64,000 bases of DNA, taken from Candidatus Saccharimonadota bacterium (lineage in GTDB: Bacteria > Patescibacteriota > Saccharimonadia > Saccharimonadales > Saccharimonadaceae). Location of the stretch: NCBI GenBank assembly GCA_017545525.1, contig JAFWMT010000002.1, positions 1 to 64,000 of the forward strand, in the 5' to 3' direction. Positions 12,323 to 14,350 of the stretch are shown piece after piece (the stretch's first letter is position 1; each line of letters opens with the position of its first letter). A model generated the notes under the pieces. It was not told the DNA's origin. It worked only from the letters and a program-made list of their open reading frames with translations, and did not search any database. A program made the position numbers and the translations under genes.

Positions 12323-14233
12323 ATGCTAAAGGTTTGTCGGAGTTTGACTTTCGTGCTAATCGGTTTGACAACCATTTCTTTCTTTGCTCTTTCCTCTTCT
12401 CCCGCCTCCGCAGACGACACCGTAGTAGATGATGTTGTAATTAATGTTCCTATTTCTTGTACCATGAGCAGTAGTGGAGAGAATTCACATACTGCTACAG
12501 TTCCTAATAATACCACTCGTTCTGATATTGGTACCACTACAGTCAATGCCTTTTGTAATGACACAGGAGGCTTTGCTATTTATGCTATAGGCTATACGGA
12601 TGAGACTTATGGTAAAACAGTACTAGCTAGTGCTACGCTAGGTAGCACTAAAGACATTGCCACTGGTACCGCTACAAGCGGTTCTACTTCTAACTGGGCC
12701 ATGAAACTCACTAATACAGGTACTACCTATCCTGTAACTATCCAGAATAGTTTTAATTCCTATCATAGTGTACCAAGTGCTTATACTTTAGTCGCTAGTC
12801 GTACTTCCGGTACTGCTGTAGGTACTGGTGCCACTGGTGCTACTTTTACTACTACTTATAGAGCTTTCATTTCTTCTACTCAACCAGCTGATACTTATAC
12901 TGGTAAGGTTAAATATACTATGGTACATCCGAACAACATTGGTGCTCCAGCTACTCCATTAGCTTCTACCGCTTGCCCTGCTAATAAAATCTGCTATGCT
13001 CCTAATGCTTACGGCGTTGTAGGTTCTATGGATTCCATTAATACTACTAAAATTACTTCTTCTGCCACGGCTGGAGTACAAGATGCTGGTAGTAATGCCG
13101 AATATACTTTAATCGCTCCAAACTATTCTAGAGCCGGTTATGGCTTTGCAGGTTGGTCTACTGACTTTGAAGTTACAAATTCCAGTACTATCTATGGCCC
13201 CAATGAAACCGTTACTACTGGCAATCTTGGTACTAATGGCATGATTCTATATCCTGTCTGGGTCGCTTCTACTGGTACGCTTCAGAACTGGGATGGTTGT
13301 AGATCGCTCACTACTGCTCCTACCGCTACTAGGGCTACTTTAGCTAGTATGACAGCTCTAACTGACGCTAGAGATGGTAATGTTTACACCGTAGCTAGAC
13401 TAGCTGATGGTAACTGTTGGATGACAGAAAATCTAAGGCTAAACGCAGATGCTACAGGAGGAGATCAGAACAAAGCTTTGTCCCAAGGTTATGGCTCTTA
13501 TTCTGGCTCTGGAACTAATTATGGGAACTTTATTGGACTAGCGGAATCTGAAAATACTAACTTTAATAACACAACTCCAAATAGCATCTATAGTTCAGAT
13601 GGAAGCACTAAGATAAACATTAATTCATCAGGCAACCCAACTTTTCGTATTCCTCGTTATAATAGCAATAATACTAATAGAAGCTTAACTGCTAATTATA
13701 ATAACAATAGTACGACTTATTATTCATGGTACGGTTATGGTAATTATTATAATTGGCCAGCAGTTATCGCTAATACTAACTATTATGGTACAAATAATAC
13801 ACCAGTAACTAATACCTCTCTTTGTCCTACTGGTTGGAGACTACCTCAAGGTGGCGATAAAACTAGAATAGAATCAAATCAAGATAATGATTTTTGGACT
13901 TTAATTGTGACTAATCTAAATGGTGGGGCTAATCCTGCTAATTATGATAGTCAGACACGACCATATTATACTGGTACCACTGAAGGCACTCCTGTTTCTA
14001 AACTCGTCAGAAAGTTTCCTAACAATTTTGTTTATTCCGGCAGCTGGAATGTCGCTCAGCCCTACTCTCGTAGCTCGCTCGGGAACTATTGGTCGTCTAC
14101 AGCGAACAGCAACCTCGACGCCTACTATCTGTCTTTCAGCAGTTCAAGCGTCTACCCAGGGGCGAGCATCTTCAATAAGAACAAGGGGCTCTCCGCCCGC
14201 TGTATGACATATGGCGGCGGCTACTTTAACTAA
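12323..14233 (+). CDS. Secreted FISUMP-domain surface protein, candidate DGR target
   Basis: 636 residues. Signal peptide about 1-30 (hydrophobic core then SPASA|DD). Residues ~35-200 form a Thr/Ser-rich beta domain; ~215-313 a Listeria-Bacteroides (Flg_new) repeat (RAGYGFAGWSTD ... ILYPVW); ~325-630 a fibrobacter-succinogenes-major-paralogous (FISUMP, C-type-lectin-like) domain with DGNVYTVARLADGNCWMTENLRL, SLCPTGWRLPQGGD, LGNYWSSTANSN and GLSARCM. There is no C-terminal anchor. The codons for residues ~572-630 switch abruptly to G/C-ending with many AGC/AAC/GAC/TAC codons, unlike the AT-rich rest. The protein is likely a surface or host-contact adhesin. Confidence 0.88.
   Translation: MLKVCRSLTFVLIGLTTISFFALSSSPASADDTVVDDVVINVPISCTMSSSGENSHTATVPNNTTRSDIGTTTVNAFCNDTGGFAIYAIGYTDETYGKTVLASATLGSTKDIATGTATSGSTSNWAMKLTNTGTTYPVTIQNSFNSYHSVPSAYTLVASRTSGTAVGTGATGATFTTTYRAFISSTQPADTYTGKVKYTMVHPNNIGAPATPLASTACPANKICYAPNAYGVVGSMDSINTTKITSSATAGVQDAGSNAEYTLIAPNYSRAGYGFAGWSTDFEVTNSSTIYGPNETVTTGNLGTNGMILYPVWVASTGTLQNWDGCRSLTTAPTATRATLASMTALTDARDGNVYTVARLADGNCWMTENLRLNADATGGDQNKALSQGYGSYSGSGTNYGNFIGLAESENTNFNNTTPNSIYSSDGSTKININSSGNPTFRIPRYNSNNTNRSLTANYNNNSTTYYSWYGYGNYYNWPAVIANTNYYGTNNTPVTNTSLCPTGWRLPQGGDKTRIESNQDNDFWTLIVTNLNGGANPANYDSQTRPYYTGTTEGTPVSKLVRKFPNNFVYSGSWNVAQPYSRSSLGNYWSSTANSNLDAYYLSFSSSSVYPGASIFNKNKGLSARCMTYGGGYFN
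14036..14232 (+). other. Candidate DGR variable region (VR) at the 3' end of the FISUMP gene
   Basis: The base composition jumps to clearly GC-richer sequence at about 14036 and stays so to the stop. The segment encodes the C-terminal lectin-fold surface (NYWSSTANSNLDAYYLSFSSS ... ARCM) and is dense in NNC codons (AAC, AGC, GAC, TAC, CTC, ATC, TTC). That is what adenine-directed mutagenesis of AAC codons would give. The position (3' end of a C-type-lectin-like domain) is that of known DGR variable regions. No reverse transcriptase or template repeat lies in this window, so this remains a candidate. Confidence 0.5.
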
Positions 14234-14246
14234 CCATTCTCTAAAA

Positions 14247-14345
14247 AGCGTATATAATATATAGTGAGTTACTTACGCTATATCTAGCGCACCACATCTA
14301 GCGTATACCACCATATCTAGCGTTCTCCCGAACACTTCCCGAACA
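14247..14345. repeat. Hairpin plus short direct repeats downstream of the FISUMP gene
   Basis: A 6-bp stem AGCGTA (14247-14252) / TACGCT (14274-14279) is followed by three copies of A(T/C)ATCTAGCG beginning at 14280, 14294 and 14313, then CCCGAACA twice (14327, 14338). This is the only non-coding sequence between the convergent FISUMP gene and uvrB. A hairpin just behind a VR is a known feature of DGR targets; the small repeats are unexplained. Confidence 0.6.
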
Positions 14346-14350
14346 AAAAG

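What the first reader, a model, noticed from the sequence alone, without database searches (positions are those of the whole stretch)
14036..14345. Candidate diversity-generating retroelement variable region at the 3' end of the FISUMP gene
The codons for the C-terminal lectin-like face abruptly become GC-rich and are dominated by NNC triplets (AAC, AGC, GAC, TAC, CTC, ATC, TTC), the footprint expected if AAC codons of a template repeat were mutagenised at adenines. The segment lies at the very end of a C-type-lectin-like domain, as known variable regions do, and is followed within 20 bases of the stop by a hairpin. DGRs are established as common in CPR bacteria. The reverse transcriptase and template repeat are not in the window, so remote or neighbouring machinery is assumed.
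Basis: partly seen in the sequence, partly recalled or inferred. Interest (0 to 1): 0.72.

Follow-up and report, generated by a model that had tools for sequence, protein, structure and literature searches.

The report
Orphan DGR variable region, machinery missing
The end of this bacterial surface-protein gene carries the marks of a known protein-scrambling system (a diversity-generating retroelement) that many sister species possess, but this genome appears to lack the scrambling machinery, so the segment looks like a leftover or an import and not an active system.

Summary
The last ~68 codons of the 636-aa FISUMP gene (12323-14233, +) switch abruptly to GC-rich, C-ending codons (34 C: 16 T, against 95:327 upstream, p=2e-10). 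It is the most extreme stretch among 3,183 gene windows tested. The claimed hairpin is no better than shuffled sequence.

The DGR reading is right in kind but not as proposed. The window lies in a Saccharibacteria genome of the Nanosyncoccus genus. 96 of 174 congeners carry reverse transcriptase hits. I recovered 50 TR/VR pairs from the genus, with 93% of mismatches at TR adenines. The window segment (14027-14203) aligns end to end with the TR of Ca. Nanosyncoccus alces and has the C-terminal position and codon footprint of verified VRs. Internal copies of the same domain lack that footprint. The fold model's best structural match is the T. denticola DGR variable protein.

The host genome has no RT, no Avd-like gene and no TR. 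Nearly all its contig breaks are explained by repeats or rRNA. Its paralogues' VRs differ at third codon positions too, unlike actively rewritten VRs. Best account: an orphaned VR, left over after DGR loss or imported. Such leftovers are already described in T. denticola.

The parts
12323..14233 (+). FISUMP (TIGR02145) surface-type protein gene, 636 aa, hydrophobic N-terminal segment
   Evidence: ORF; NCBIfam TIGR02145 45.9 bits over cut-off 41.65, residues 469-628; no Pfam hit
13316..14215 (+). C-type-lectin-like domain (300 aa modelled)
   Evidence: AlphaFold2 on 74 locus sequences, pLDDT 89, pTM 0.89; best VIA-align match 2y3c T. denticola variable protein 1, Z 7.9, then Legionella Lcl C-terminal domain, Z 7.3
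14027..14203 (+). DGR-type variable region: part that aligns without gaps to the template repeat of Ca. Nanosyncoccus alces (G001)
   Evidence: 70% identity, E=3.3e-15; identity 0.76 at TR non-A and 0.53 at TR A positions; AAY codons keep third base 18/24 but positions 1-2 only 23/48
14027..14230 (+). GC-rich, C-ending codon tract (whole shifted segment up to the stop)
   Evidence: 34 C: 16 T third bases vs 95:327 upstream, p=2.1e-10
14234..14350 (.). intergenic tail with short ATCTAGCG direct repeats; no hairpin better than shuffles; no IMH identified
14351..16432 (-). convergent uvrB; no RT, Avd or TR follows the target gene
   Evidence: ORF table; own-genome searches

Best explanation
The segment is the variable region (VR) of a DGR target gene, by descent. 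Shown: it is homologous to TR/VR pairs of congeneric DGRs, lies at the C-terminal end of a C-type-lectin-like domain, and keeps the DGR codon pattern (positions 1-2 free, third base retained). Inferred: in an ancestor or a donor, an error-prone RT copied a GC-rich, AAC-rich template RNA, misread its adenines, and the cDNA replaced the 3' end of the gene. Because a TR is non-coding, its composition does not follow host codon usage, which explains the abrupt GC3 shift. In the present genome RT, Avd-like gene and TR are not found, so the segment is best read as an orphan VR, fixed after loss of the DGR or brought in by recombination. The protein is probably a displayed binding protein with a frozen (or selection-only) binding face. 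Six paralogues carry similar segments at different stages of decay.
For: (1) 50 TR/VR pairs in congeners: 991 of 2,777 TR adenines changed vs 73 of 7,827 other bases. (2) The window VR aligns to the G001 TR over 177 bp without gaps; AAC codons became NNC in 14 of 18 cases. (3) Verified VRs have the same C-ending fraction (median 0.69) as the window (0.66-0.68), while 49 internal copies of the same domain have 0.38 and none reaches the window's log odds ratio. (4) Against paralogue C9, differences at codon positions 1+2: 3 flip from 52:86 upstream to 48:18 in the VR (p=3e-6); pN triples while pS does not rise. (5) No RT: PF00078 at E<=10 and genus RT profile both empty, with controls at 1e-214 to 1e-219; no Avd-like; no TR by BLAST or TR pattern. 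(6) Contig ends are 16S/23S pieces, exact 141-bp overlaps, or FISUMP paralogue repeats, leaving one unexplained junction, C4 end/C7 start. (7) Paralogue VRs grade from 0.68 to 0.31 C-ending, as expected of erosion.
Against: No cognate TR is known: identity at non-A positions to the best TR in the genus is only 0.76, so the A-specific signature is indirect. The VR footprint is not eroded (0.68), which would be odd for an old relict and asks for recent loss or import. The assembly is 96.4% complete, so a cassette of about 3.5 kb could hide in the one unexplained junction or on an unassembled element. C3 does not show the codon-position flip significantly (p=0.15).
Confidence: 0.7

Rival explanations
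1. Active VR: a DGR RT and TR exist in the living organism, in an assembly gap or on an element lost from the bin, and act in trans on this gene.
For: The window VR is as C-rich as verified VRs. A 77%-complete bin without RT (JAFOJM, apparently the same genome as G029 because a contig length coincides) still shows two targets freshly rewritten from one TR: 25 VR differences, none at third positions, against 54 third-position differences upstream, so missing RTs can be an assembly effect.
Against: This assembly is 96.4% complete and nearly all contig ends are explained. The window VR and its paralogues differ at 21-25 third positions, so they were not rewritten recently from one shared TR. No TR anywhere.
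Confidence: 0.14
2. Not DGR at all: an ordinary surface lectin whose exposed loop residues evolve fast by selection, with an unrelated local GC-rich tract.
For: No machinery in the genome; paralogue VRs carry ordinary synonymous divergence.
Against: Internal copies of the same domain lack the signature (median 0.38 C-ending). Verified VRs in congeners have it, with the same boundaries. The TR of a sister species aligns end to end. Selection on amino acids does not predict retained third bases C at AAC sites.
Confidence: 0.09
3. Cassette shuffling: the variable end is exchanged among the seven paralogues by gene conversion (antigenic-variation style), independent of a retroelement.
For: The family is mosaic: about 480 bp of the N-terminal part of the window gene is about 95% identical to paralogue C6c, then drops to about 50%. 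Several paralogues share repeats that break contigs.
Against: No other paralogue carries the window VR; own-genome BLAST finds at most 70-84% identity there. Shuffling explains neither the GC3 shift nor the position 1-2 bias.
Confidence: 0.07

Closest known systems
[quoted passage not shown]
   Same: VR-bearing C-terminal C-type-lectin target, no RT and no TR in the genome, relatives with intact DGRs; the fold model's top structural match is T. denticola variable protein 1 (2y3c)
   Different: There the VRs match known TRs of the same species at nearly all non-A positions; here the best TR is from another species and matches 76% of non-A positions
Patescibacteria/CPR cellular DGRs (DGR clade 2 of Roux et al. 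2021, PMC8144416); Ca. Nanosyncoccus alces DGR on contig NZ_PRLM01000005.1
   Same: FISUMP-type C-terminal VR, AAC-rich GC-rich TR, same genus
   Different: The window genome lacks the RT, accessory gene and TR. RT clade placement was not tested here
Nostoc all3226 remnant variable protein (PMC7517822)
   Same: Remnant VR homology without a nearby RT
   Different: Cyanobacterial, other target family

Membership tests
Diversity-generating retroelement (complete, active system) | DGR-type reverse transcriptase in the genome | tested here: not met
   PF00078 E<=10: none; genus RT profile: none, positive controls E 1e-214 to 1e-219. Assembly 96.4% complete
Diversity-generating retroelement (complete, active system) | Template repeat nearly identical to the VR except at adenines | tested here: not met
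   Own-genome BLAST with the VR and with a congener TR finds only FISUMP paralogues; TR pattern absent
Diversity-generating retroelement (complete, active system) | Accessory (Avd-like) protein | tested here: not met
   Profile of five congener accessory ORFs: none in own genome; that profile is diverse, so weak
Diversity-generating retroelement (complete, active system) | Population variation at the VR | not testable with these tools
   No reads and no second strain of the species
DGR variable region (target gene, by descent) | C-terminal position in a C-type-lectin-like domain | tested here: met
   VR ends at the stop; model pLDDT 89, top match 2y3c Z 7.9, rmsd 4.7, 170 aligned
DGR variable region (target gene, by descent) | Homology to a DGR TR or VR | tested here: met
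   177 bp ungapped to the G001 TR beside its RT, E=3.3e-15
DGR variable region (target gene, by descent) | Differences concentrated at template adenines | tested here: inconclusive
   Against the best heterologous TR: A identity 0.53, non-A 0.76; AAY positions 1-2 23/48 vs other codons 59/70, p=4e-5. No cognate TR to settle it
DGR variable region (target gene, by descent) | IMH / downstream cis element or hairpin | tested here: inconclusive
   No hairpin better than shuffles; no IMH identified
FISUMP domain family (TIGR02145) | Curated model score over cut-off | tested here: met
   45.9 bits vs 41.65

The most novel reading that the evidence does not exclude
Some Nanosyncoccus species keep fresh, un-eroded VRs without owning a DGR because they repeatedly import VR segments or whole target genes by recombination from DGR-bearing siblings, living off diversity made elsewhere. 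Seventeen other genomes checked (two of them under 90% complete) also lack any DGR RT, and at least eleven of them carry terminal VR-like segments with a strong footprint.
Probability: 0.2. Interest if true: 0.72.

Novelty: new member of a known kind. Interest (0 to 1): 0.46.

Why it matters
It shows that a codon-composition footprint can reveal DGR-made variable regions in genomes that no longer hold the machinery, with a built-in control (internal copies of the same domain lack it). It suggests that DGR loss or VR transfer is frequent among small episymbiotic Saccharibacteria, whose surface proteins presumably decide which host cell they attach to. It also gives a simple test (third-position differences between targets of one genome) to tell actively rewritten VRs from orphans.

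Tried and rejected
Hairpin after the stop: not better than shuffles. Remote RT in the genome: two profile searches empty. TR in the genome: BLAST and pattern empty. Hidden cassette at contig ends: ends explained by 141-bp overlaps, rRNA and FISUMP repeats; only C4 end/C7 start is left, and C7 start looks like a mobile element. Phage source: no related protein in viral contigs. DGR at the place syntenic to G001 (beside the GDTLIEVMLAVGIFSM pilin-like gene, C9): no RT or Avd match in that stretch. Single-sequence fold was useless. PDB sequence search with the domain profile: none. Foldseek alone gave no significant match; the VIA Z of 7.9 is modest.

Full report
OBSERVATION. The gene at 12323-14233 (+) encodes 636 aa with a FISUMP domain (TIGR02145, 45.9 bits, cut-off 41.65). 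From about 14027 to the stop its codons change sharply: 34 end in C and 16 in T, against 95 and 327 before (p=2.1e-10); GC3 is 0.71 against 0.24. Among 3,183 windows of 57 codons over 40 genes of the 64 kb, the only two that reach this value lie in the same segment. G-ending codons are enriched as well, so the shift is not limited to NNC. The hairpin after the stop is not better than shuffled sequence (z -0.49 and -1.27).

WHERE IT IS. The genome (720,812 bases, 9 contigs, 96.4% complete) belongs to the same genus as G001. The window's genome carries seven related FISUMP genes.

ACTIVE DGRs IN THE GENUS. RVT_1 is over its cut-off in 96 of 174 congeners. Loci around these RTs contain a target gene with a C-terminal VR, an accessory ORF, the RT and a TR. 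In 50 TR/VR pairs, 991 of 2,777 template adenines are changed (36%) but only 73 of 7,827 other bases (0.9%). These are typical DGRs.

THE WINDOW SEGMENT COMPARED. The G001 TR, used as query in the window's own genome, hits first the window VR (14027-14203, 70%, E=3.3e-15). The 177-bp alignment has no gaps. Identity is 0.76 at non-A and 0.53 at A positions. At TR AAY codons positions 1-2 are kept in 23 of 48 cases but the third base in 18 of 24; at other codons positions 1-2 are kept in 59 of 70 (p=4e-5). In verified VRs the C-ending fraction is 0.69 (median), in internal copies of the same domain 0.38 (p=2e-10 for the log odds ratios), and no internal copy of 49 reaches the window's value. Several multi-domain proteins show it only in the last domain (L081, L082, L083, L077). 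This argues that the footprint comes from the DGR and not from the fold. The RT-less relatives were found by similarity to the window gene, a bias to keep in mind.

FOLD. A model from 74 locus sequences has pLDDT 89 and pTM 0.89. VIA-align ranks T. denticola variable protein 1 first (2y3c, Z 7.9, rmsd 4.7, 170 aligned), then the Legionella Lcl C-terminal domain (Z 7.3) and many C-type lectins. Foldseek alone gives nothing significant, so this is moderate support for a C-type-lectin-like fold.

MACHINERY. The own genome has no RVT_1 match even at E<=10, none to a genus DGR RT profile (the same profile gives E=1e-214 to 1e-219 in three control genomes), no match to the accessory profile and no TR. 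I checked the contig ends: exact 141-bp overlaps (C4 start/C5 end; C1 or C6 start/C8 end), a 95-bp overlap (C5 start/C6 end), a tandem repeat (C1 end/C2 end), 16S and 23S/5S pieces, and FISUMP paralogues sharing a repeat (the 16S piece at C2 start is read by eye). Only the C4 end/C7 start junction is unexplained. A hidden DGR is therefore unlikely but not excluded.

ACTIVE OR NOT. Two targets in one genome that are rewritten from one TR should differ only at codon positions 1-2. This is seen in JAFOJM (25 differences, 0 at third positions, while the upstream parts differ at 54 third positions) and nearly so in G147 (15+12: 4). In the window's genome the pairs with the window gene differ at 21-25 third positions in the VR. 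So the window VR shares no recent TR with its paralogues. Against C9, codon positions 1+2: 3 are 48:18 in the VR and 52:86 upstream (p=3e-6); against C5 43:23 and 60:86 (p=0.002); against C3 not significant. The C-ending fraction falls from 0.68 (window) through 0.51-0.52 (C5, C9, C3) and 0.40 (C6b, C7) to 0.31 (C6c), as erosion of old VRs would give.

OTHER RT-LESS GENOMES. Seventeen further genomes checked with the RT profile are also empty (two of them, G029 and G087, are under 90% complete), and eleven of them carry terminal VR-like segments with strong footprints. The TR pattern occurs in 21 genomes, nearly all of them with an RT (G109 is the exception). Orphan VRs thus seem common in the genus, either because DGRs are lost often, because VRs move between species, or in part because bins are incomplete.

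KNOWN GROUND. Leftover VR genes without RT and TR are described in T. denticola (PMC4891356) and a remnant in Nostoc (PMC7517822). Patescibacteria have their own DGR clade (PMC8144416). I therefore file this as a new member of a known kind.

CONCLUSION. The segment is a DGR variable region by descent (about 0.85), most likely without machinery in this genome (overall 0.7).

Noticed in passing
L073:5173-5397, L074:1592-1827, L075:6461-6656, L077:5177-5418 and other RT loci: In 46 of 47 DGR loci with the main RT type the TR lies on the strand opposite to the RT (45 of them downstream of it, tail to tail), so it is inverted relative to the usual target; three loci with a second RT group have the TR upstream on the same strand.
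   Followed up: partly
window 12442-12922 and L016: About 480 bp of the N-terminal part of this gene is about 95% identical to paralogue C6c, then falls to about 50%: mosaic exchange of N-terminal cassettes.
   Followed up: partly
window 15816-15943: A GC-rich palindromic element lies in frame inside uvrB; related copies occur at six other places of the genome, one inside a gene that looks like ileS (C1:37939-37980). It resembles protein-inserted palindromic repeats of Rickettsia (from memory, not tested).
   Followed up: partly
L087 and L092: Two targets in one bin without RT differ at 25 VR bases, none at third codon positions, although the gene bodies differ widely: one DGR acting on two genes.
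   Followed up: partly
L252:1-7000: C7 start carries genes of element type (putative primase/helicase-like), cut by the contig end; possibly a mobile element.
   Followed up: no
L234 (G109:C13:21358-21411): One genome without an RT hit has a TR-like sequence with 3 mismatches to the TR pattern.
   Followed up: no
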